DNA from: Syntrophorhabdaceae bacterium
GTDB lineage: Bacteria; Desulfobacterota; Deferrimicrobia; Deferrimicrobiales; Deferrimicrobiaceae
Direction: 5' to 3'
NCBI GenBank assembly: GCA_009783195.1
Contig: WRHP01000005.1
Coordinates: forward strand, 1-57,886
DNA: 57,886 nucleotides
Shown here: piece by piece, positions 29,207 through 44,198 of the stretch
Position numbering within the stretch: the stretch's first letter is position 1
Layout: each line of letters starts with the position of its first letter
Notes under the pieces: generated by a model
Told to the model about the DNA's origin: nothing
Seen by the model: the letters and a program-made list of their open reading frames with translations, nothing else
Database searches by the model: none
Program-made: the position numbers and the translations under genes

Positions 29207-29236
29207 TAAGGGAGGGGGGGCGCCCCCCCTCCTTTA
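29207..29236 (+). repeat. GC-rich perfect inverted repeat after fliC
   Basis: A nearly perfect inverted repeat with G7 and C7 runs (centre at 29221/29222) lies 19 bases after the fliC stop and before flaG. The stem is about 13-14 bp with one G-T pair and a tetraloop in RNA. No T run follows, so it is more likely a transcript-stability or read-through-limiting hairpin than a standard terminator. Confidence 0.7.
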
Positions 29237-31994: not shown

Positions 31995-33662
31995 ATGGAA
32001 CTGGAACTGACCCGGCGGGGAAACTATTCGCTGCGAGTTGTCTGTCCGGACGGATCGGAGAGGGTCTTTCACAGCCTTTATGACCCGGAAGGGGAAGCTG
32101 AAGCGCTTGTTGACGCTTCAGGTTTTTCCGGCAGCGGCATGCTTGTCGTGCTTGGCTTGGGGCTGGGCTACCATGTGGACCGGATGCGACGGCTGTATCC
32201 TGACGCGGAGATCGTGGTTATTGAGTCATCGCGTAAGATCTTCGATTTATGCCTGGAGCATGGGAAAGGGGCGCAGCCGTCGGAGAAGGTTCATTTCCTG
32301 GTAGACCTTGCTCCCGAAGAAGCCATATCGGAAGTTTCGCGCATCCATCTCAAAGCGGGGTTTTTGCCCCTCTCTGTTTTTAGCTTTGCGCCAGGGATAG
32401 CTTTTGCGCCCGGATACTACGATCCGATTCGCGCGGCGCTCGAAAAAAGCATCTCTTTCCGGCTCTGGGAGCGGGTCCGGTATCCTAAACTTGCGCCGGG
32501 AAATCTGACGATCGCGCTTTTTGACTTTGGCTACTTCTTGACGGAAGAAATCGCTCGCGCGCTTGCGGCGCTTGGCCATTCGGTGGTGCGCGTCCGCGGG
32601 AAAAAGGACGAAAAGTGCGGCGACATACTGGGGAGAGTTACCGAAACCATCGCTTTGAAGCGCCCCGACTTCTTTCTTACCGTGAATCATTTGGGTTTCG
32701 ACGAAGAGGGTGTGCTTGCCGACTTCTTTGAGTCGATCGGGATGCCGGCTGCTGTCTGGTACGTGGACAACCCCAATCTCCTGATGCGGATTTTTCCGCA
32801 AAATGTTTCGCCTTGCTGTTGTGTCTTCACTTGGGATGAAAGCTATAAGGAATCGCTGCGCGGGATCGGGTTTGAGAATGTGGAATACCTGCCGCTGGCT
32901 GCCGACGAGGAGATTTTCCACCCAATGCGTTTATCTATCGAGCGGAGAAACAGGCTTGGGGCTGATGTCGGGTTTGTAGGCGATTCGAGAGCTTCGTGGG
33001 CGCGGGAGCTGCTCCAAAAGGTGCGGCAAGAGTTGCATCCGGCTGTAAAGCGTGTTGCGCAGCGGCTTTCTGTTGCGCGCAATCTTGCGTTTCACGAGGC
33101 GAAGGAAGCTGAAATGCGTGACAGCGAACATGCTTTGTTTGAGGCGCTGACTGAAAGAGAAAAATCGGATTTTGAGGCGGCGGTTTTTTGGCGGGGAACA
33201 CTTCTTTATCGCCTGTCGTGTTTGCGGACTCTTGAAGAATTTTGCCCTTTGGTGCGCGGCGATGCCGAATGGGGAAAACTGTTAAACGATAAATTCCGGT
33301 TTGGCCCCAGAATCAACTATTACAAAGAGCTTCCCGCCTTTTATAACTTGTGCCGGATCAATTTAAACACGACCAGCATACAGATGGACACGGCGGTCAA
33401 CCAGAGGGTGTTCGATGTTCCTGCTTGTGGGGCGTTTCTGCTTACGGATCGCCGACCGTCTCTTTCGCCCCTTTTTGAGGAGGGGAAAGAGGTGATTGTT
33501 TACGACAGCCCGGAGGAAATCCCGGAGCTTGTGAGGTTTTATCTGCGAAACAATACCGCGCGGGAAGCTGTTGCGGCAAAAGGCAAGGCTCGGGTACTGC
33601 GGGAGCACACGTATAAGCACCGGGTAGACGCAATTATCCGGCGGCTTCGGGATGACCTCTAA
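31995..33662 (+). CDS. Maf-N-like module fused to CgeB-type glycosyltransferase
   Basis: The 555-residue product opens with a ~100-residue module: FHSLYDP (25-31) then VVLGLGLGYHV (51-61) and IVVIE. The same module is found at the start of the proteins encoded at 37179 and 38479, and resembles the N-terminus of Maf flagellin-modification proteins. From about residue 165 a GT-B fold begins (LTIALFDFGYFLTEEIARAL), and the C-terminal ~110 residues match the Glyco_trans_1_2/CgeB domain (INLNTTSIQMDTAVNQRVFDVPACGAFLL to LREHTYKHRVDAIIRRL). Location after the flagellin chaperones suggests flagellin glycosylation. Donor and acceptor are unknown. Confidence 0.78.
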   Translation: MELELTRRGNYSLRVVCPDGSERVFHSLYDPEGEAEALVDASGFSGSGMLVVLGLGLGYHVDRMRRLYPDAEIVVIESSRKIFDLCLEHGKGAQPSEKVHFLVDLAPEEAISEVSRIHLKAGFLPLSVFSFAPGIAFAPGYYDPIRAALEKSISFRLWERVRYPKLAPGNLTIALFDFGYFLTEEIARALAALGHSVVRVRGKKDEKCGDILGRVTETIALKRPDFFLTVNHLGFDEEGVLADFFESIGMPAAVWYVDNPNLLMRIFPQNVSPCCCVFTWDESYKESLRGIGFENVEYLPLAADEEIFHPMRLSIERRNRLGADVGFVGDSRASWARELLQKVRQELHPAVKRVAQRLSVARNLAFHEAKEAEMRDSEHALFEALTEREKSDFEAAVFWRGTLLYRLSCLRTLEEFCPLVRGDAEWGKLLNDKFRFGPRINYYKELPAFYNLCRINLNTTSIQMDTAVNQRVFDVPACGAFLLTDRRPSLSPLFEEGKEVIVYDSPEEIPELVRFYLRNNTAREAVAAKGKARVLREHTYKHRVDAIIRRLRDDL

Positions 33663-33700
33663 AACTATGCGGCCGACGCCAACGAAAGAATCGCAATTTA

Positions 33701-34195
33701 ATGGATATTAATAAAAAGAATATGAGTTTAAGCGAAAAGCGGCAAATGCTTGCCAATTTGCTGCTAAATCTTTATCGCAAACATCAAATCATGGAGTCTT
33801 CCAAGCTGTATTACGATAACGAATTGTACAAATTAATAAGAGATTTGCTGGCTGTTATTTCAGACGACGATCAAGCTAATGTTTTGGCGCTTCGCTCCTA
33901 CGACGCATTGCAAGATGATGAATCGAGGCGAATTCATGCTTGTTTGTTTTTGTGCAAGTGTATTGGGATAAGCGATATTGCGGGTATGTGCGCGGAGTTT
34001 GAGGCGCTTAAAGGCGCGGAAAATACGATTCGCAGATGTAAGCCGAAACTCGCTGTCTGCATATACCACAAACCATCGGATGTTGTTGAAATACCGGCGT
34101 TAATTATGAATTTTTTCCCGGAATACAAGTTGTACATAAGACAGCATCACGCAAGGGTTCTAACGGAAATTGTTTTGTATGCATTGCCACAATAG
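33701..34195 (+). pseudogene. Truncated FkbM-type methyltransferase remnant
   Basis: The last ~70 residues of this 164-residue frame match the C-terminus of FkbM-family methyltransferases: EFEALKGAENTIRRCKPKLAVCIYHKPSDVVEIPALI and ending TEIVLYALP. The preceding SAM-binding core is missing; residues 1-90 are helical and unlike FkbM. The junction reads ISDIAGMCAEFEALKG, where an intact family member would have the DIEG motif just before this point. This suggests an in-frame internal deletion. The region is AT-rich. It may still be translated, but it cannot be a working FkbM enzyme. Confidence 0.6.
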
Positions 34196-34243
34196 AAATT
34201 GTCAGCACGCGCTACCCATGCCGTATTAACGGAGGTAGTTGGA

Positions 34244-35221
34244 TTGAAAAAAATTCCCATGACAGTGTTGATTACAACGGCGAACAATCCGCCGTCGGGT
34301 GTGCCGTTTTTGGAGATGGTAAACCCGAATATTCGGATGATCGCGGCGAAAGCCGCCTTGTATTTTTGGGTTACTCAAGGAATAGAGCAAATTGTGTTGG
34401 CTGACGCGACAGCAACAAATTTGCTCAGCGAGTACGAAGTGGCGGAAATTGATAAATTACATACGCGCATAGAGCAAATAAGCTATAAACAAGCCGGCGA
34501 AGAAATAATCGAGAGAGGGAAAGGTTACGGCGAAGGCAAGCTTATTGAGTATGCAATCAACAATTCGGAACTACTTGCGCATGAAGAGTCTTTTTTCAAA
34601 TGTACAGGCAAAGTATATGTTCGAAATTTTCCGGATATCGCCGAAATCATAAAGGCTAACAGCATATCGAGCTTATTTTGGAGATACATGGGGGACGGCA
34701 CAGAGGTGAAGCATTGGGCTGATTGCCGGTTCTATTACACATCTAAAAACTTTGCTGAAAATCACCTGATACCTGCCTACCTTGAGTCTCACGATATTAA
34801 TAAGGTCGCTTGTGAAAATTATGTTTATAAAGCGCTTGAACATAATATGAGAGCCGGCAGGGGGGCTCGGCCACTCATAACAGGATATGCTGGTAGTACA
34901 GGCGAAGCGTATTTTGATTTGAGTTTAGGAAGCCTGGATAATAATTTTCCGTGTTGGGTTGGCTATGCTACTAACGTGATCGCGGAACCCGCGCTAACAT
35001 CCGGCGACCTTGAAGACGCAAGGGGAGCTTTGGAGCGGCATCTTATGGAATGCCCTCTTGATGTAGATGCCTTGATACGACATTCGGATATTCTTTTTCG
35101 CTTGGGATCGAAAGAAGCGGCGCTGGAGAGTTTAAATAAGGTGCTGTTGTTTTATCCGGGGCACGAGGAGGCGCTTCGTTGTAAGGTTGCTATCGAAAAT
35201 GCCGCTCTCCGGAGGAAATGA
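34244..35221 (+). CDS. Probable transferase with C-terminal TPR region, unknown family
   Basis: From TTG 34244 (GGAGG eight bases upstream) the product is 325 residues. The first ~240 residues have VLITTANNPPSGVPFLEMVNPN, FWVTQGIEQIVLADAT, GKGYGEGKLIEYAINNS and FFKCTGKVYVRNF; the LADAT segment and general layout suggest a GT-A-like sugar transferase, but I do not recognise the family. The last ~75 residues form TPR-like helices (GDLEDARGALERHLMECPLDVDALI, SKEAALESLNKVLLFYPGHEEAL). It is AT-rich. Its last codons and the following bases resemble the repeat junctions at 37146 and 38446. Confidence 0.6.
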   Translation: MKKIPMTVLITTANNPPSGVPFLEMVNPNIRMIAAKAALYFWVTQGIEQIVLADATATNLLSEYEVAEIDKLHTRIEQISYKQAGEEIIERGKGYGEGKLIEYAINNSELLAHEESFFKCTGKVYVRNFPDIAEIIKANSISSLFWRYMGDGTEVKHWADCRFYYTSKNFAENHLIPAYLESHDINKVACENYVYKALEHNMRAGRGARPLITGYAGSTGEAYFDLSLGSLDNNFPCWVGYATNVIAEPALTSGDLEDARGALERHLMECPLDVDALIRHSDILFRLGSKEAALESLNKVLLFYPGHEEALRCKVAIENAALRRK

Positions 35222-35275
35222 CGCCGTATATTTGGAGAAAAATTTTAAAAAAACCTGAAATACTATCGTTGCGGC
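35203..35275 (+). repeat. Decayed copy of the module-gene junction repeat
   Basis: The end of the preceding gene and the next ~50 bases align with the start of the 536-bp repeats: the stop context (AGGAAATGACGCC) is identical, and the following frame reads LKKPEILSLRL where intact copies read LKKLETLSPRL. The start codon is lost. It looks like a fossil third copy of the module start. Confidence 0.6.
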
Positions 35276-35296
35276 TTATTGTTTACGGAGATAGTA

Positions 35297-37102
35297 ATGA
35301 GCGGACATAGAAACATAACAATGATTTTGGAAATCAGTAAAAGTACCCCGGAAATTTTAAACCATACCGAATTTTTTGATGAATTTCTTCAGAAAGGCAA
35401 CCGGGCGATAGTTATACATGACGAATCGTTCAAAGCGCCTTGTGAAATCAAAGGTGATATATCGTTTTACAGCTTGTCGCCTGGAGCGACAAGCGTGGAT
35501 ATATGCAACTACGCGGTATTCGAACTGGATAAAACCGAAAACGATGTGTTGGTTGTGTCGCAGGATCTGCGCCCGGAGTCGATATCATTTTATGACGAAA
35601 TGTCTTCATGTTTATACGTCTGTGAAAAACACGCCGTTGTGTGCGCAAGAAACGAGGCTTCAGGGCCGCTTAATGATGCCGCCAAAAAATACCTTCCGTC
35701 ATTTCACGTGACCTCAGATGTTGACGCGGGTTGTGTTCTTATAAAAAGAAAAATTATTGATAATCTGGGGTTTTTGTTGCGGAAGTCGGCTAACCTTAAA
35801 TATTCCTTGATGGATTTTTGTTACACAATAAACGGCTACGGCTATAGCGCGGTTATTTCAAACCATGCCACTGTCTCATACCCGCGTGAACCGCAAAATA
35901 AAGATGAAGAAGAGGTTTTCCTTAGCACGTTCCCCGGTCGCGAAAATGTAGAACACAGCAAAGATATTTTTAATATCCATCCATGCTTGTGGTTTTTAGA
36001 TCTGCTTGCGGAAAATTACTATCCTGTGCCAAAAATATTGTTTGATTTTTCCGCGATGCCTAAAATATATTGCGGCACTTCTGAAAGCATGCTTTCATTT
36101 TTTAACGCGTTCTATAAATTATATAGAAAACATTATAATATTTATGTACTAATAAGACCAGATGTGGATAAATCTTTAGGATTGTCGAAAAAATATCCTG
36201 ATGCGCACTTTTTAGAAACGATAAAAGAAACATTTCATTTGGGCATTGCAATTAATCAGCCCTGGTATATGAATCAGAATATTATATTTAATAAGCACTG
36301 TCTTAAAGTAGTGTTTTGGATGCTGGATATTATCATGGCGCGTTGTGAATATATCGTCCCTGTCAAGGAAAGGGCAGTGCTGGTCAAGGCTCTAAGGCTT
36401 GGAATGAGGCTTGCGGACGGGATAATTTCAATCAGTGATTTTACCACAAAAGATTACAAGGCGTATTTATCCTCTTACGCGGAGGCGGTAAATAAGCCTG
36501 TTAAAACGATTTATCTTGCAAGTAATTTTTCTCCAAACGATACCAGGCATCCGGATCTTCCTTTTGACAAATATTTTCTAATAGTGGGAAATCCTTATAA
36601 GCATAAAGCCATTAACAATATCTTGAACGTACTTGTGGAAAGCCCGCATAATTTTATTGTGGTTGGAGGGGCGTATACGGGGCATGTCACTAATAACATA
36701 TATTTTTACCAAAGCGGCGCTATGCCTGAAGATTTTCTAAGTTCTTTGTATACGAATTGCGAAGCGCTGATCTTTCCCAGCCTGTATGAGGGTTTTGGTT
36801 TGCCTGTGACAATAGGGCTCAAGAATAAAAAACGGGTAATACTCTACAATAACGAACTTAACAGGGAACTGACAGCCCTTTATAAAGATTTTTCGGAATA
36901 CCTGATTTATTTTGATTACTTCCACCAAATCCCGGCTCTTATTGATTCTATAGATTTTAACGCCTCCTTGCCGAATGTAGGGTATAGTCGTACTTGGGAT
37001 GATGTTGCGGCAGACGCGGAAGTGTTTTTTAAAGATATTTTAGATACCGAAACAGATGTGGAAAGGTTATTTGACAGATGGGAAAGGCTTTCATTTTTTT
37101 AA
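35297..37102 (+). CDS. Two-domain glycosyltransferase (GT2-like + GT4-like)
   Basis: From ATG 35297 (GGAG upstream) the product is 601 residues. The N-terminal part (about 1-225) resembles the end of a GT2-type fold, with DVDAGCVLIKRKIIDNLGFL and DFCYTINGYGYSAVISNHATV. The C-terminal part (about 250-600) is a GT-B group 1 (GT4-like) domain with YFLIVGNPYKHKAINNIL, FIVVGGAYTG and EALIFPSLYEGFGLPVTIGL, where the EGFGLP segment carries the conserved glutamate. Composition is strongly AT-rich, unlike the flagellar genes, pointing to horizontal transfer. It lies between the relic junction and the first intact module gene. Confidence 0.75.
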   Translation: MSGHRNITMILEISKSTPEILNHTEFFDEFLQKGNRAIVIHDESFKAPCEIKGDISFYSLSPGATSVDICNYAVFELDKTENDVLVVSQDLRPESISFYDEMSSCLYVCEKHAVVCARNEASGPLNDAAKKYLPSFHVTSDVDAGCVLIKRKIIDNLGFLLRKSANLKYSLMDFCYTINGYGYSAVISNHATVSYPREPQNKDEEEVFLSTFPGRENVEHSKDIFNIHPCLWFLDLLAENYYPVPKILFDFSAMPKIYCGTSESMLSFFNAFYKLYRKHYNIYVLIRPDVDKSLGLSKKYPDAHFLETIKETFHLGIAINQPWYMNQNIIFNKHCLKVVFWMLDIIMARCEYIVPVKERAVLVKALRLGMRLADGIISISDFTTKDYKAYLSSYAEAVNKPVKTIYLASNFSPNDTRHPDLPFDKYFLIVGNPYKHKAINNILNVLVESPHNFIVVGGAYTGHVTNNIYFYQSGAMPEDFLSSLYTNCEALIFPSLYEGFGLPVTIGLKNKKRVILYNNELNRELTALYKDFSEYLIYFDYFHQIPALIDSIDFNASLPNVGYSRTWDDVAADAEVFFKDILDTETDVERLFDRWERLSFF

Positions 37103-37145
37103 ATGTTGAGAAAGAGATAAATAATGTGCGTATGCGCGTCTTGAG

Positions 37146-37681
37146 TTGAGGATACCGCTCCCCAAAGGAAATGACGCCATGTATTTAGAGCAAAACCTGA
37201 AAAAACTTGAAACGCTCTCCCCTCGGCTTGCAAAGCGTTTGCGCGACGCCGAATGCGCCGGAAGCGTCACCGTCGTTACGTCGAAGGCCGGGCTGCCGTC
37301 GATAAAAATAGAAGACGCGTTACTGCACAGCTTATACGACCCGGCGCGGGAAGCCCGCGATTGGGTGGAGCACCATCAGGCCGATACCGAAGCGGCATCT
37401 TCTATCGCGGTGCTTGGGGTTGGCTTTGGATATCATGTGGAAGAGTTGTTGCGCGTCACGAACAAGCCGGTGGTGGCGTTTGAGCCCCGTTTAGACGTTT
37501 TGCGGGCCGCCGCTACGGCGCGTGATATGTCCGCGCTGTTTTCGCGAGTTAAGATCGCGTGCTGCCCCGACGACCTTGAGGTTCCGACGGCGGACGGGCT
37601 GCTTTGCATACTGCGGTATGAGCCGTCCGTGCGCCTTGATCCTGCCGCTCACAAAGAAGCCGAATCCCGCATGGAGACGCT
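37146..37681 (+). repeat. Direct repeat copy 1 (module repeat)
   Basis: 536 bp repeated at 38446-38981, offset exactly 1300 bases. The first ~430 bases differ at only about a dozen positions, many synonymous; the last ~70 are more diverged. It spans the ribosome-binding site, start codon and N-terminal ~167 codons of the gene at 37179. Confidence 0.95.
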
Positions 37682-38474
37682 GCGTACCGGCGAGCAAGAC
37701 GCGTCGCAAGCTTTTACGCCTCAAGTGGTTGCGGCGCCAGAAGAAGAAAGCGCCCCGGACCGCTCCTATTACCGCCAATCCCGGCCGGATATCGAAGCAA
37801 TGATCCCCGTCCGCGCTTTACGGATACTGGATATAGGGTGTGGCGAAGGCGTGCTTGGGCGTAATCTCTTGAAAAAAAGGGCGATCGAAGTTGTCGGAAT
37901 AGAGGCGGATCCGGCGGCGGCGGAAGCCGCGCGCAAGAACTTGACGCGAGTTTTACATGGTGATGCGGAGACGATGGATTTTCCGTTTGAGGATGGGTAC
38001 TTCGATTGCGTCGTCCTTGCGGATGTTCTGGAACACATGCGTGATCCGCTCTCGATCCTTAAAAAAGCAAAACGGTGTCTTTCCGGTTCGGGTGTTGTTG
38101 TGGCAAGTATTCCCAACGTCCGGTTTATAGGTGTGCTGAATCTGCTTGTTGAAGGGCGATGGGAGTACAGGGACGAAGGGATTCTCGACCGGACCCATCT
38201 GCGGTTTTTTACGAGGAAGGAAATGGAAATCCTGTTTTGCGACGCCGGGTTTGAGCTGGAAAAAGTTTTCGAAAATATGGCCCCGGAATACGCTTCCGTT
38301 CCCTCCGGCCACAAAGGTGATATTACATTTGGTCGTGTTGCGCTTCGTGACCAGACGCTGGAAGAAATAAAGGATCTGTTCGTTATCCAATACGTATTTC
38401 GTGTCCGGAAGGTCGGTTTAGCCGCAATTTCTGTTAACGAGGCTATTGAGGATACCGCTCCCCAAAGGAAATGA
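37179..38474 (+). CDS. Maf-N-like module fused to SAM-dependent methyltransferase
   Basis: From ATG 37179 the product is 431 residues. Residues 1-170 are the module (LLHSLYDPAREA at 48-59; VLGVGFGYHV at 78-87; VVAFEP). A linker leads to a class I methyltransferase (about 205-430): SAM motif LDIGCGEG (217-224), VVGIEAD, DCVVLADVLEHMRDPLSILK and SIPNVRF. The methyltransferase could act on a glycan or on the flagellin. Its last codons (EDTAPQRK) and stop lie inside the second repeat copy, i.e. in the junction preceding the next module gene. Confidence 0.8.
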   Translation: MYLEQNLKKLETLSPRLAKRLRDAECAGSVTVVTSKAGLPSIKIEDALLHSLYDPAREARDWVEHHQADTEAASSIAVLGVGFGYHVEELLRVTNKPVVAFEPRLDVLRAAATARDMSALFSRVKIACCPDDLEVPTADGLLCILRYEPSVRLDPAAHKEAESRMETLRTGEQDASQAFTPQVVAAPEEESAPDRSYYRQSRPDIEAMIPVRALRILDIGCGEGVLGRNLLKKRAIEVVGIEADPAAAEAARKNLTRVLHGDAETMDFPFEDGYFDCVVLADVLEHMRDPLSILKKAKRCLSGSGVVVASIPNVRFIGVLNLLVEGRWEYRDEGILDRTHLRFFTRKEMEILFCDAGFELEKVFENMAPEYASVPSGHKGDITFGRVALRDQTLEEIKDLFVIQYVFRVRKVGLAAISVNEAIEDTAPQRK

Positions 38475-38981
38475 CGCCATGTATTTAGAGCAAAACCTGA
38501 AAAAACTTGAAGCGCTCTCCCCTCGGCTTGCAAAGCGTTTGCGCGACGCCGAATGCGCCGGAAGCGTTACCGTCGTTACGTCGAAGGCCGGGCTACCGTC
38601 GATAAAAATCGAAGACGCGTTACTGCACAGCTTATACGACCCGGCGCGGGAAGCCCGCGATTGGGTGGAGCACCATCAGGCCGATATCGAAGCGGCGTCT
38701 TCTATCGCGGTGCTTGGAGTTGGCTTTGGATATCACGTGGAAGAATTGTTGCGCGTCACGAACAAGCCGGTGGTGGCGTTTGAGCCCCGGTTAGACGTTT
38801 TGCGGGCCGCCGCTACGGCGCGTGATATGTCCGCGCTGTTTTCGCGAGTTCAGATCGCGTGCTGCCCCGACGACCTTGAGGTTCCGCCGACGGACGGTTT
38901 GCTTTGCGTCCTGCGGTATGAGCCGTCCGTGCGTTTTGATCATGCCGCGCACGAGGAAGCCGCATCCCGCTTGGAGACGCT
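38446..38981 (+). repeat. Direct repeat copy 2 (module repeat)
   Basis: Second copy of the 536-bp repeat. Its first 29 bases encode the C-terminus of the preceding methyltransferase; the rest gives the start of the gene at 38479. In copy 1 the same 29 bases are non-coding, so copy 1 probably once followed another methyltransferase gene. Confidence 0.95.
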
Positions 38982-40266
38982 CCATGCTGTCGCGCGAGGG
39001 TTGAATATAGCCGTGGTCGGCCCGTTCTACGGAGGATCGCTGCCTGTTGCGGGCTACTGCGTTTCGGCGCTGCAAAGTTGCGGACACAATGTGGAATTTA
39101 TCGACAACAGCGTCTATGCGGATGCATTACTCTCGATCGACGGGATGACGGATAGCCAAACTCACCGAAGGATCTTGATGGGAAAGTTGGGGGAGTTTGC
39201 GTCCGAGGCGGCAATGGCGCGGATCGTACAGTTTCGTCCCGATATCGTGCTTGCGCTGGCGCAGGCGCCGCTTAATCCGCCGTCCCTGAAGATTCTAAGA
39301 GAAAATGGAGTCGTGACCGCGTTCTGGTTCGTGGAAGATTTACACCATATGGGGTATTGGCGGGATCTCGCCGGCGAATACGATTATTTCTTCGGGATAC
39401 AAGAAAACCTCCTGGATATGCTGCGTGAAGCGGGCGCGCCACGTCCGGCATTTCTTCCTTTGGCGGCGTCTCCTGATATTCACCGAAAGATGGATCTGGA
39501 CGCGGAAGATCTTGCGGAGTTTGGCAGCGATGTTTCCTTTGTTGGCGCGGGGTATCACAACCGGCGGCAAATGTTCACGGGGCTTATAGACCTCGATTTC
39601 CGGATATGGGGCAACGATTGGGATGGATGTCCGGGCAGGCTTAGGCCGTTTCTGCAGCGGGATGGCGCGCGCGTGGACACCGAAGACATTGTGAAAGTGT
39701 TCAACGCCAGCCGGATCAATATCAATCTGCACTCCTCCAGCTACCATGAAGGCGTAAACCCCGACGGCGATTTTATAAATCCGCGAACATTTGAAATCGC
39801 GGCTTGCGGCGCTTTCCAGCTTGTGGACTCAAGAAAGAAGCTTTCCGATTTCTTTCAAATCGGAGAGGAGATCGTGTGTTTTGACAATCTTGCCGATCTG
39901 CGCGCCAAGATCGCCCGGTATCTGGAAGATCCCGAAGAGAGAAAAGCGGTAGCCGAGCGTGGCATGCGGCGGGTTCAAAGGGACCATACATATAAGCGCC
40001 GGATGGAGGAAATGATAGGCTTCATGGTCCGGTCGGGCTTGCGTCTGCCGTGGCGGGAGGAGCGAAGGCGGGAGGACCCCGGAAAGCTTATAGCCGAGGC
40101 CGGAGCGGATACCGAGCTTGGGAAATATCTGGCCCGCTTTGCCGGGGCGCGCAACCTGAAACTTGCGGACATTTTGCAGGAGATTAAGAAAGAGAAAGGG
40201 GATCTCTCGCGTGTCGAGCGGATTTTCCTGACTATGGAGGCGTTTCAGGCATGGGCGCGGAAATAA
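38479..40266 (+). CDS. Maf-N-like module fused to CgeB-type glycosyltransferase
   Basis: The 595-residue product begins with the module almost identical to that at 37179 (residues 1-about 170). It then switches to a GT-B glycosyltransferase: LNIAVVGPFYGGSLPVAGYC (about 175-195), VTAFWFVEDLHHMGYWRDLA and the C-terminal Glyco_trans_1_2 region NINLHSSSYHEGVNPDGDF, EIAACGAFQLVDSRKKLSD and RDHTYKRRMEEMIGF. A further ~75-residue C-terminal helical tail follows. It is thus a module-swapped counterpart of the preceding gene. It overlaps the next gene by 16 bases. Confidence 0.8.
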   Translation: MYLEQNLKKLEALSPRLAKRLRDAECAGSVTVVTSKAGLPSIKIEDALLHSLYDPAREARDWVEHHQADIEAASSIAVLGVGFGYHVEELLRVTNKPVVAFEPRLDVLRAAATARDMSALFSRVQIACCPDDLEVPPTDGLLCVLRYEPSVRFDHAAHEEAASRLETLHAVARGLNIAVVGPFYGGSLPVAGYCVSALQSCGHNVEFIDNSVYADALLSIDGMTDSQTHRRILMGKLGEFASEAAMARIVQFRPDIVLALAQAPLNPPSLKILRENGVVTAFWFVEDLHHMGYWRDLAGEYDYFFGIQENLLDMLREAGAPRPAFLPLAASPDIHRKMDLDAEDLAEFGSDVSFVGAGYHNRRQMFTGLIDLDFRIWGNDWDGCPGRLRPFLQRDGARVDTEDIVKVFNASRININLHSSSYHEGVNPDGDFINPRTFEIAACGAFQLVDSRKKLSDFFQIGEEIVCFDNLADLRAKIARYLEDPEERKAVAERGMRRVQRDHTYKRRMEEMIGFMVRSGLRLPWREERRREDPGKLIAEAGADTELGKYLARFAGARNLKLADILQEIKKEKGDLSRVERIFLTMEAFQAWARK

Positions 40267-41966
40267 AAGAAATTCTCGTTGTCAACACAATGCGCATGGG
40301 AGACCTCGTCCAGACGACGCCAACGCTTATGGGGCTTAGAAAAAAGTGGCCCGACGCCAGGATCACCGTCCTTGTGAATTCGGTGTTTAAAGAGATCTGC
40401 AAAGGCATGCCGTTCATCGATAATCTTATTGTTTGCAAAAAGGGCGAATTCGTAAAAATGTTCGAGAAAGAGAATAAATACTCGCTTGTTGAGTGTTATC
40501 GGCGCATTGAAGAGTTGGTAGACGAGGTAAACCAGACAGAATACGACCTGATGATCAATCTTACGCCGTCGCCCGATAGCGCTTTGCTGGTGTCGCTGTT
40601 TAATGCGCGTGAGATGCGAGGGGTAACAGCGGGCGCCGACGGCGCTCGGGTTATCCGGCATCCCTGGCAGCGGTATCTGATGAACGTGATTCCCTCCCGC
40701 AAGTACAATCCGTTCCACTTGAGCGACATCATGATAAAAACCGCCGGCATTCCTCATTCCGGCGACGGGCTTAGCCTTTCCGTGTCAGACGAGGAGAGCG
40801 CAAAGGCAAGGGCGCTTCTGGAGCAGTTTGGAGTAAACGACGGCGACTTGCTGATCAGTTTTCAACTCGGGGCAAGCAAGGAGTTGAGAACCTGGCCGGT
40901 TGCTTCTTTCGCGCGGCTTGGGGACTTGCTTACGGAGTCGCTTAAAGCGCGCATCCTGCTTACAGGATCAAATTCAGAGGAGAAACTTGGAAAAGAGTTT
41001 GAATCCGCCTTCTCCCACAAGGCAATAAATCTTATAGGGAAGACCAACTTGAGAGAGGTGGCCGCGCTTTTGAAGCGGTGCTCCATTCTGGTTACAAACG
41101 ACACGGGGCCGCTTCATATAGCAACGGCGGTCGGCACAACCGCCATCGCCCTGTTTCTTGGGCACGCCTGCTGCCGGGAGACCGGTCCTTACGGGGAAGA
41201 TCATTACGTGATAGAGGCGGACATCTTATGCAGTCCGTGCGGGCATGCTGTTAAATGCACTAATCACCTGTGTAAAAAGATGGTTACGCCGGACTGCGTC
41301 TTGGAACTTGCGGCGCGCATTCTTTCTTCGGGACGGATAGAGAAACTTGAGGATGGCCCGGTATGGGAGAGCGTCCGTGTTTTCCGCTCCTGCTTTGCGC
41401 CGGACGGCATGCAGGATTACGCTCCGCTTCTTCGCCGCACGCTGACTCCAGAGGTGTTCTATCAGTATATTTATCGGGAAACGTGGCTCCGCGTCCTTGA
41501 CGGCGATTCCGGGTTTCGCGCGGAAGAAATTTGCGGCGTGATAGAGGCGAGGGTATCCGCCTGGTACCGGGAAGGCGATCTGGTGTCGGTGCTGCGGGTA
41601 GCCGGCGAAGACCTTTCGACGCTGCGCAAAATGGAAGCATTGGCCGAAGAGGCCTCGACGAGGATATCGCTTATAAAAAACGAAATAGACAAGCCGTCAC
41701 CCGACGTTGGGTTGATTCAACGCGTCTGGAAGGATGCGCCGGTCATCGACCGTGAGATCGATACGCTGGGACGCACTCATCCCGCGCTCATGCCGCCGGT
41801 CATGATGTTCAGGTATGACAAAGAGGCGTTGGAAGGGAAAGAACTTGCGCCGATGGTGGAGGCCGCCGTAGGGTTTTATGCCGATCTCAAGAAACACTTT
41901 TCCATGCTTACGGCAACAATTGAGCTTCTCCTTGAAAAGCACGTAAAAACAGCGCGAGACTCATGA
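40251..41966 (+). CDS. GT9 (heptosyltransferase-type) glycosyltransferase with C-terminal extension
   Basis: The first ~360 residues match glycosyltransferase family 9: ILVVNTMRMGDLVQTTPTLMGLRKKWPDA, ISFQLGASKELRTWPVASFARL, LLTGSNSEEKLGKEF and VTNDTGPLHIATAVGTTAIALF, with the conserved GPLHIA segment. Typical members end near 350 residues; here a further ~210 residues follow, mostly helical (from about VFRSCFAPDGMQDYAPLL to the end), of unknown function. It is translationally coupled to the upstream CgeB gene and closes the run of transferases. Confidence 0.85.
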   Translation: MGAEIKEILVVNTMRMGDLVQTTPTLMGLRKKWPDARITVLVNSVFKEICKGMPFIDNLIVCKKGEFVKMFEKENKYSLVECYRRIEELVDEVNQTEYDLMINLTPSPDSALLVSLFNAREMRGVTAGADGARVIRHPWQRYLMNVIPSRKYNPFHLSDIMIKTAGIPHSGDGLSLSVSDEESAKARALLEQFGVNDGDLLISFQLGASKELRTWPVASFARLGDLLTESLKARILLTGSNSEEKLGKEFESAFSHKAINLIGKTNLREVAALLKRCSILVTNDTGPLHIATAVGTTAIALFLGHACCRETGPYGEDHYVIEADILCSPCGHAVKCTNHLCKKMVTPDCVLELAARILSSGRIEKLEDGPVWESVRVFRSCFAPDGMQDYAPLLRRTLTPEVFYQYIYRETWLRVLDGDSGFRAEEICGVIEARVSAWYREGDLVSVLRVAGEDLSTLRKMEALAEEASTRISLIKNEIDKPSPDVGLIQRVWKDAPVIDREIDTLGRTHPALMPPVMMFRYDKEALEGKELAPMVEAAVGFYADLKKHFSMLTATIELLLEKHVKTARDS

Positions 41967-42686: not shown

Positions 42687-44198
42687 ATGCCGATTATGGA
42701 AAATGAAAGGAAAGGCCAGATACTGATCGTCGATGATGACGCAAGTGTTCGCGGTCTCCTTTCACAGGTTCTTGCGGAAGCGGTGAATTACGACATAGAT
42801 ATGGCTGCCGACGGCGTGGAAGGGCTTGAAAAGGTTTGCTCCAAACAGTACGACCTCATATTTACAGATCTCACGATGCCTCGCATGAGCGGTATGGATT
42901 TCCTTCAGAAAAGTAAAGAAATCAACGCCTCCATTCCGGTAATTGTCCTTACCGGGCTTTCCTCAATGGAAGTCGCCGTTTCCGCAATGCGCAAAGGGGC
43001 CTCCGATTTCCTGACAAAGCCGTTTACAATCGACAAGATTATACAAACCACCAGACGTGTTCTCGGCGAGTGGAAACTGTACGGTCGGCTTGTCTCGAAG
43101 CAAGGCTCCGACGAGTCGCTAAAGATGTTGAACGCCGAGTTGTTCAAGCGACTTCAGGAGATAGGGGCGCTCCACTCGATCGGCCTCGAGGTTGACGGCT
43201 GCCTCGATAACCGGGAGATCTACAGCCGGGTGGCGCAAATGGCGGCGAAACTTTTGGCGGTGCGCGAGGCGTTTTTCGGCATCGTTGAGGGAGATCGCTT
43301 GAACATCCGCTCATCCGTCGGAATCAACAGCGATTTATTCCCCATCTCCGGGCGCTTGTTTGATACTGTCATTCGTGACAAGAAACACTTTATAGCTGAT
43401 ATAAAAAAGCCGCATCCCTATACCGGCGTTGAGCTTATGTCCCAGTTCCTGGCGATTCCGTGCCTCGTCGGAAACGACGTGTTCGGTATCCTGAATCTCT
43501 CCGGAAAGACGGACAGCGCTTCTTTTACCGAGGAAGAGATCTTCATCGCTATCAATCTGGCCCGGAAGATCTCGTCAAAGATCGAAAATAACGCGCTGTA
43601 CGAGGCTTTATTCAATAACGTCGCCGATACGATGAAATCAATCATCACCATGGTCGGCGCGCGGGATTCCTATACGAAGGAGCACTCCGACCGGGTTACG
43701 ATGTACTCTGTTCTGATTGCGGAGGCTATGGGGGTTCCCCAGGGAGAGATAAGCACACTACGGTTTGGCGGATACCTGCACGATATCGGTAAGATCGGGG
43801 TCCGCGACACGGTGCTTCTCAAGCCGGGCAAGCTGTCGCTGGGAGAGATAGGCGAGGCGCAACTTCATGCCGTCATCGGCGACGAAATCGTAAAGCCCAT
43901 GAACTTCTTCGAGAAGGAACGCAAGGTCATACGGAATCACCACGAGCGATACGACGGAAAAGGTTATCCTGACGGTATCGGAGGCGAGGACATCCCGATC
44001 ATAGTCCGGATTCTGACCGTAACGGATGCGTATGACGCCATGACGTCTCATCGCCCTTACCGGAGGGCGCTTTCGGTCCAGATGGCAGTCGAAGAGCTGG
44101 AACGTTGCGCGGGTTCGCAGTTTGATCCGGCGGTAGTGGAGGCTTTCAAAGCGATACTTAGTGAAAAGGAGATTTTAGATGGCACTGGACATCGGTAA
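42687..44198 (+). CDS. Response regulator with receiver, GAF-like and HD-GYP domains
   Basis: The 503-residue product has a receiver domain (about 10-125: LIVDDDASVRGLL, TDLTMPRMSG, VLTGL, FLTKPF), a GAF-like domain (about 160-300: ALHSIGLEVDGCLDNREIYSRV to IFIAINLARKI) and an HD-GYP domain (about 315-495) with EHSDRVTMYSVL, LHDIGKIGVRDTVLLKPG, HHERYDGKGYPDG and TDAYDAMTSHRPYR. All catalytic signatures are intact, so it should degrade c-di-GMP under control of a kinase not seen here. It precedes a PilZ gene and two stator pairs. Confidence 0.92.
   Translation: MPIMENERKGQILIVDDDASVRGLLSQVLAEAVNYDIDMAADGVEGLEKVCSKQYDLIFTDLTMPRMSGMDFLQKSKEINASIPVIVLTGLSSMEVAVSAMRKGASDFLTKPFTIDKIIQTTRRVLGEWKLYGRLVSKQGSDESLKMLNAELFKRLQEIGALHSIGLEVDGCLDNREIYSRVAQMAAKLLAVREAFFGIVEGDRLNIRSSVGINSDLFPISGRLFDTVIRDKKHFIADIKKPHPYTGVELMSQFLAIPCLVGNDVFGILNLSGKTDSASFTEEEIFIAINLARKISSKIENNALYEALFNNVADTMKSIITMVGARDSYTKEHSDRVTMYSVLIAEAMGVPQGEISTLRFGGYLHDIGKIGVRDTVLLKPGKLSLGEIGEAQLHAVIGDEIVKPMNFFEKERKVIRNHHERYDGKGYPDGIGGEDIPIIVRILTVTDAYDAMTSHRPYRRALSVQMAVEELERCAGSQFDPAVVEAFKAILSEKEILDGTGHR

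What the first reader, a model, noticed from the sequence alone, without database searches (positions are those of the whole stretch)
31995..40266. A shared Maf-N-like module is fused to three different catalytic heads
Seen: the proteins at 31995, 37179 and 38479 share an N-terminal module (HSLYDP, then a Gly-rich VLG-GYH segment and IVV/VVA-E/F-P/S). It is followed in turn by a CgeB glycosyltransferase, a SAM methyltransferase and another CgeB glycosyltransferase. Known: the module resembles the N-terminal domain of Maf flagellin-modification proteins. Inference: the module may bind flagellin or its export complex, and heads are exchanged to diversify modification. I know of no description of this module-head swapping.
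Basis: partly seen in the sequence, partly recalled or inferred. Interest (0 to 1): 0.75.

Follow-up and report, generated by a model that had tools for sequence, protein, structure and literature searches.

The report
Portable Maf N-domain on different enzymes
A domain of unknown function, known so far from the Maf enzymes that decorate bacterial flagella, turns out to be a portable part that sits beside flagellar genes on several different sugar- and methyl-transferring enzymes, or entirely alone, so its role can now be tested by itself.

Summary
The three proteins share a ~165-residue N-terminal domain, followed by a CgeB-type GT-B glycosyltransferase (31995), a class-I methyltransferase (37179) and a CgeB glycosyltransferase of another clade (38479). 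The domain is the Maf N-terminal domain (PF20157); catalytic Maf domains were found neither in this genome nor in 12 relatives. The 37179 protein is a recent chimera: its module is a 536-bp, 95%-identical DNA copy of its neighbour's. In three congeners the same methyltransferase is part of a larger protein with a TPR tail and no module. The copied core is under purifying selection. Elsewhere the module occurs on Maf, on two CgeB clades and on methyltransferases with at least three origins. It also stands alone in Bdellovibrionota, in the order fliD-fliS-(fliT-like)-module-GT9 in all 23 loci examined. Of 80 module-bearing genomes in the window's phylum, 78 carry flagellin (p = 5e-17). Heads are mostly inherited with their module; swaps are rare, so 'exchange to diversify' is overstated. 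Flagellin docking is the best guess but untested: conservation centres on a degenerate methyltransferase-like Rossmann motif, so ligand binding is a serious rival. I found no published description of this portability.

The parts
31995..32492 (+). Module A (Maf N-terminal-like domain, residues 1-166)
   Evidence: A1 profile E 1.7e-55 (the profile includes this sequence); hhalign of A-type modules to Maf N-domains 99.9%; AlphaFold2 pLDDT 94
32493..33662 (+). CgeB-type GT-B head of A (DUF3880 + Glyco_trans_1_2, clade A)
   Evidence: Pfam PF12996 2.8e-8, PF13524 1.2e-34
35182..35259 (+). Relic of a third copy of the C-gene start (end of the TPR coding sequence plus first module codons), degenerate
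   Evidence: ~77% identity to 37152-37212 and 38442-38511; local alignment score 60 against a maximum of 26 in 300 shuffles
37146..37681 (+). Direct repeat copy 1: 33 bp upstream plus module of B
   Evidence: 95.3% identical to 38446-38981; core dN/dS 0.12
37179..37688 (+). Module B (PF20157), residues 1-170
   Evidence: Pfam 2.6e-7, above cut-off
37761..38400 (+). Class-I SAM methyltransferase head of B; its last ~16 residues (to 38474) align with the end of a TPR tail otherwise deleted
   Evidence: Pfam PF13489 3.6e-22; PDB 3cc8 9e-44; 67-73% identical to the MTase domain of the protein upstream of C in relatives; tail alignment
38446..38981 (+). Direct repeat copy 2: end of B coding sequence plus module of C
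38479..38988 (+). Module C (PF20157), residues 1-170
   Evidence: Pfam 1.1e-6, above cut-off; best PDB hit 5mu5 (Maf) for C-type modules alone, 1.3e-4
39001..40266 (+). CgeB-type GT-B head of C (clade C)
   Evidence: Pfam PF12996 2e-11, PF13524 1.5e-40
40251..41966 (+). GT9 (heptosyltransferase-like) with long C-terminal extension, conserved downstream partner of module-CgeB_C and of stand-alone modules
   Evidence: PF01075 3.2e-28; present beside the module in most CgeB_C and all stand-alone loci fetched
34199..35221 (+). ORF that now carries the TPR tail found in relatives on MTase or GT4 proteins directly upstream of C
   Evidence: 54-65% identity of residues ~257-337 to tails in L011, L012, L013, L015
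28340..31824 (+). fliC, flaG, fliD, fliS and a FliT-like gene immediately upstream of A

Best explanation
The shared N-terminus is the Maf N-terminal domain used as a portable part of flagellin-modification enzymes. Each protein would be a cytoplasmic enzyme of flagellin modification: A and C transfer sugars through CgeB GT-B heads, B methylates (most likely a sugar) through its methyltransferase head, and a GT9 enzyme encoded next to C belongs to the same pathway. The module most likely provides the common contact with the acceptor (flagellin, or flagellin with its chaperone FliS/FliT), so that any head joined to it works on the same target; in Bdellovibrionota it would do this in trans for separate GT9 enzymes. 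B arose recently when a copy of C's module was joined to a methyltransferase domain released from a neighbouring multi-domain protein. Shown: domain identity, portability, stand-alone existence, flagellar linkage, the duplication, and purifying selection on the copied core. Inferred: acceptor docking, enzyme activities, order of the reactions.
For: Domain identity: Pfam, hhalign with control, PDB profile hit to Maf 5mu5. Portability: heads Maf, CgeB_A, CgeB_C, methyltransferases in L112, L150, L187-L189, extra GT2/GT4/GT9/GT17 or TPR parts, with at least 3 origins of methyltransferase heads. Stand-alone: single ~200-277 aa ORFs in about 75 of 192 Bdellovibrionota genomes, in the order fliD-fliS-(fliT-like)-module-GT9 in 23/23 loci. 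Genome-level link to flagellin, p=5e-17. The same conserved residues in all four contexts argue for one head-independent function. Recent chimera and selection. Lineage lacks Maf catalytic domains. Precedent: FlmG has a separate TPR flagellin-binding domain and GT domain (PMC7591256).
Against: No binding or activity data exist. The conserved residues (HSxYDPxxEA, GxGxGYH, acidic end of strand 2) look like a cofactor pocket rather than a broad protein-binding surface. CbMaf glycosylates short mini-flagellins and chimeras (PMC11339370), so acceptor recognition need not involve a large interface. Gene neighbourhood cannot tell flagellin from another flagellar-regulon target. The window genome is an 88%-complete draft assembly, probably from a metagenome, and B was seen in this one genome only.
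Confidence: 0.55

Rival explanations
1. The module is a small-molecule (SAM-, nucleotide- or nucleotide-sugar-like) binding Rossmann domain, a degenerate methyltransferase, that regulates or feeds the attached enzyme; flagellar linkage reflects the pathway, not acceptor docking.
For: Foldseek against the PDB returns almost only class-I methyltransferases and spermidine synthases for both the fused and the stand-alone module, over a partial core at TM<0.5. GxGxG and the acidic residue at the end of strand 2 are nearly invariant in all contexts. The Maf crystal structure, as summarised in PMC11339370, has a degenerate Rossmann fold with weak methyltransferase-like motifs.
Against: The acidic residue of motif I is absent; no catalytic motif is visible; profile similarity to true methyltransferases is weak (15-21%). 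A purely regulatory ligand site would not obviously explain the tight linkage to fliS/fliT and the stand-alone form.
Confidence: 0.3
2. The modules are non-functional or purely structural baggage: B is a recombination by-product and heads are carried along by chance.
For: B was found in one genome only, next to relics of the same rearrangement.
Against: Core dN/dS 0.12 since duplication; intact frame and complete methyltransferase motif I; independent module-methyltransferase fusions elsewhere; a stand-alone conserved family.
Confidence: 0.08
3. The enzymes decorate something other than flagellin (for example LPS or another surface glycan) and sit in flagellar loci for co-regulation.
For: GT9 is the LPS heptosyltransferase family; CgeB and GT9 acceptors are unknown here.
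Against: Position directly after fliD-fliS-fliT in two phyla; 78/80 co-occurrence with flagellin; Maf, the best-known carrier of the domain, acts on flagellin.
Confidence: 0.07

Closest known systems
Maf (motility accessory factor) glycosyltransferases; Pfam PF20157 + PF01973; structure 5mu5 from Magnetospirillum magneticum
   Same: N-terminal domain homologous over most of its length; flagellar gene neighbourhood
   Different: No MptE-like/Maf_flag10 catalytic domain; heads are CgeB GT-B or methyltransferase, and in Bdellovibrionota there is no head at all
FlmG of Caulobacter crescentus (PMC7591256)
   Same: Modular flagellin-modifying enzyme in which one domain carries acceptor binding and another the glycosyltransferase
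   Different: FlmG uses TPR repeats as its N-terminal flagellin-binding domain; here the N-terminal part is a degenerate Rossmann domain whose binding partner is untested
CgeB / Glyco_trans_1_2 glycosyltransferases (PF13524, PF12996)
   Same: Heads of A and C belong here
   Different: N-terminal Maf-type module and flagellar locus; no solved structure matched A by sequence
Class-I SAM methyltransferases (Methyltransf_23; PDB 3cc8)
   Same: Head of B matches the family and has motif I
   Different: Carries the Maf-type module in cis; the relatives' homologue is part of a GT2-GT4-MTase-TPR protein

Membership tests
PF20157 Maf N-terminal domain | Score above the curated cut-off | tested here: met
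   B 30.8 and C 28.8 bits against 23.5; A gives no PF20157 hit even at E 0.1
PF20157 Maf N-terminal domain | Profile-level homology to the N-domains of catalytic Maf proteins | tested here: met
   hhalign A-type 3.4e-31, C-type 2.4e-35, stand-alone 9.7e-16; control against methyltransferases 1e-3
PF20157 Maf N-terminal domain | Sequence match to the solved Maf 5mu5 N-domain | tested here: met
   C-type profile: best hit, 1.3e-4; A-type profile only weak, 0.0048
PF20157 Maf N-terminal domain | Fold match to 5mu5 | tested here: inconclusive
   5mu5 not among the 50 listed Foldseek hits, which are methyltransferase-like
Maf glycosyltransferase (whole enzyme) | Central MptE-like/Maf_flag10 catalytic domain | tested here: not met
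   No PF01973 in A, B or C, nor in the genome (88% complete) or 12 relatives
Maf glycosyltransferase (whole enzyme) | CMP-nonulosonic acid donor pathway | tested here: inconclusive
   Only a weak NeuB-family match, probably another aldolase-type synthase, in the incomplete genome; two congeners have a full NeuB match
CgeB-type GT-B | PF12996 + PF13524 above cut-off | tested here: met
   A and C
Class-I SAM methyltransferase | Motif I and family score | tested here: met
   B head: PF13489 3.6e-22, ILDIGCGEG
FlmG-type modular flagellin transferase | N-terminal TPR flagellin-binding domain plus GT | tested here: not met
   No TPR in A, B or C
Flagellin-modifying enzyme | Modifies flagellin | not testable with these tools
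   Only genomic linkage is available

The most novel reading that the evidence does not exclude
The Maf N-domain is an autonomous flagellin-modification adaptor: a pseudo-methyltransferase Rossmann protein that presents flagellin (or flagellin with its chaperone) to modifying enzymes, in trans in Bdellovibrionota and in cis on interchangeable heads elsewhere, with Maf itself being only one of its products.
Probability: 0.4. Interest if true: 0.75.

Novelty: new variant of a known kind. Interest (0 to 1): 0.6.

Why it matters
The role of the Maf N-terminal domain is an acknowledged unknown (PMC11339370). A stand-alone version in Bdellovibrionota, including Bacteriovorax sp. BSW11_IV, and natural fusions to a methyltransferase and to CgeB enzymes let that role be tested without the Maf catalytic domain. 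They also widen the set of candidate flagellin-modifying enzymes beyond Maf and Flm to CgeB, GT9 and methyltransferase heads. The B gene shows a domain fusion caught soon after it formed, with relics of the rearrangement still readable.

Tried and rejected
An alignment mixing module rows with methyltransferase rows was misaligned and not used for folding, so a structure of full-length B was not attempted. Foldseek did not list Maf 5mu5, so fold comparison neither supports nor refutes membership. A high-ranking PDB hit to a de novo TIM barrel is a repeat artefact. The PADLOC hit of B to 'mad2' lies in the methyltransferase domain only and was not taken as defence. Frequent cassette-style head exchange was considered and rejected because heads cluster on the module tree; in that tree L187 and other long branches are uncertain. 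Literature searches found no description of CgeB or methyltransferase fusions to the Maf N-domain in the held library; most subscription papers were not searchable.
Full report
CHECK. A (31995) and C (38479) carry CgeB-type GT-B heads (PF12996 + PF13524). B (37179) carries a class-I methyltransferase (PF13489; best PDB relative 3cc8, 9e-44). B and C match Maf_flag10_N (PF20157) above the curated cut-off; A does not. With relatives added, A-type, C-type, stand-alone and Maf N-domains match in profile-profile comparison (98.6-99.9% probability, E 1e-15 to 1e-35). The same modules against genuine methyltransferases give 15-21%, so the match to Maf is not a generic Rossmann signal. The Maf structure 5mu5 is the best PDB sequence hit for C-type modules and for the combined profile.

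FOLD. AlphaFold2 gives a confident single domain (pLDDT 94): short N-terminal strands followed by a small alternating alpha/beta core. Foldseek returns class-I methyltransferases and, for the stand-alone form, many spermidine synthases, with TM-scores under 0.5. This agrees with the published description of the Maf N-domain as a degenerate Rossmann-like fold of unclear function with weak methyltransferase-like motifs (PMC11339370).

HOW B AROSE. Modules B and C are a 536-bp direct repeat, 95.3% identical, beginning 33 bp upstream of the start codon. The methyltransferase there carries no module: in L011, L012 and L013 it lies directly upstream of C with a TPR tail, and in L011 it was read in full as part of a ~1019-residue GT2-GT4-linker-methyltransferase-TPR protein. 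In the window that arrangement is broken up. B's methyltransferase is joined through the linker to a copy of C's module, and its last residues align with the end of the TPR tail. The TPR tail itself now ends ORF 34199-35221, followed by a degenerate relic of C's start at 35182-35259. Since duplication the module core has 8 synonymous and 3 non-synonymous differences (dN/dS 0.12, Fisher p=0.001) and the linker end is looser (0.35), so the copies have been kept under selection as protein. The TPR tail is itself portable: directly upstream of C it ends a methyltransferase in the congeners, a GT4-like protein in L015 and another ORF in the window.

HOW WIDESPREAD. Among 118 module ORFs of the named scan, 59 have CgeB clade C, 29 clade A and 21 Maf as best head. 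Further combinations are GT2-GT2-module-CgeB, GT4-GT17-module-CgeB, GT4-module-CgeB, GT9-module-CgeB and module-Maf-TPR. Methyltransferase combinations independent of B are module-Methyltransf_25 in a Thermodesulfovibrionia genome, between module-CgeB_A and module-CgeB_C (L112), module-RMNT_CmcI (L150), and methyltransferase-module tandems followed by methyltransferase-module-Maf (with TPR repeats in L187) (L187-L189).

STAND-ALONE FORM. In Bdellovibrionota the module is, almost always in single copy, a protein of about 200-277 residues in about 75 of 192 genomes. In all 23 loci examined (20 fetched plus 3 from the named scan) the order on one strand is fliD, fliS, often a FliT/FlgN-like gene, module, GT9 (usually two). 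This mirrors the window: fliC, flaG, fliD, fliS, FliT-like, module A ... module C, GT9. The stand-alone model has the same core with extra C-terminal helices (pLDDT 91).

HOW OFTEN HEADS CHANGE. On a tree of 98 modules, head types cluster strongly (17 changes, 54 in shuffles). B sits beside C (100*) and the L112 methyltransferase module sits inside the CgeB_A clade (97*). Methyltransferase heads need at least three origins on starred branches. Swapping is therefore real, repeated and rare.

MECHANISM. The same residues are conserved whatever the head, and mostly also without a head: HSxYDPxxEA, GxGxGYH and an acidic residue at the end of strand 2 (the residue numbers printed there are 5 too low). 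In the more divergent stand-alone proteins of L180-L186 the HSxYDP part has decayed while the glycine motif and, usually, the acidic residue remain. The module thus appears to have a function of its own, tied to flagella. Acceptor docking explains portability, the trans form and the linkage to chaperone genes, and has a precedent in FlmG, whose separate TPR domain binds flagellin (PMC7591256). A ligand-binding role is the main rival because the conserved residues lie where class-I methyltransferases bind their cofactor. Sequence data cannot decide between them. In the window lineage no Maf catalytic domain was found in 13 genomes, so here the module serves other heads only.

LIMITS. The genome is an 88%-complete draft, probably from a metagenome; B is known from it alone; enzyme activities and acceptors are inferred from families; tree rows with long branches are uncertain; Bdellovibrionota and Nitrospirota are my names for the phyla that the tool groups with L164 and L112, taken from record titles.

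Noticed in passing
L167-L186, L147, L151, L164: A conserved stand-alone protein family (~200-277 aa) between fliS/fliT-like genes and GT9 in Bdellovibrionota, for which I found no description; the members from L168 and L180 give no Pfam hit.
   Followed up: yes
window 40251-41966: GT9 heptosyltransferase-like protein with a ~230-residue C-terminal extension, consistently next to the module; a candidate flagellin glycosyltransferase. In L131 it is fused directly to module-CgeB.
   Followed up: partly
window 34199-35221; L011:8946-12002; L015:9524-10867: A TPR tail directly upstream of the module-CgeB_C gene is attached to three different proteins in three lineages, a second portable part at the same locus.
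   Followed up: partly
L187:4476-10859, L188:5223-11708, L189:7473-13001: Methyltransferase-module proteins followed by one methyltransferase-module-Maf protein of ~1180 residues, in tandem.
   Followed up: partly
window 29207-29236: 30-bp inverted repeat (93%) between fliC and flaG, probably a terminator.
   Followed up: no
window 35279-37102: GT4-like gene between the relic and B, with no homologue in any fetched relative locus.
   Followed up: no
window 42687-44198: Response regulator-HD-GYP protein followed by a PilZ protein and motAB, conserved next to the module locus in several relatives: a possible c-di-GMP link to motility.
   Followed up: no
L058:6332-7072: Stand-alone module directly beside a full module-Maf gene in a genome of the window's phylum (G037, also G074).
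   Followed up: partly
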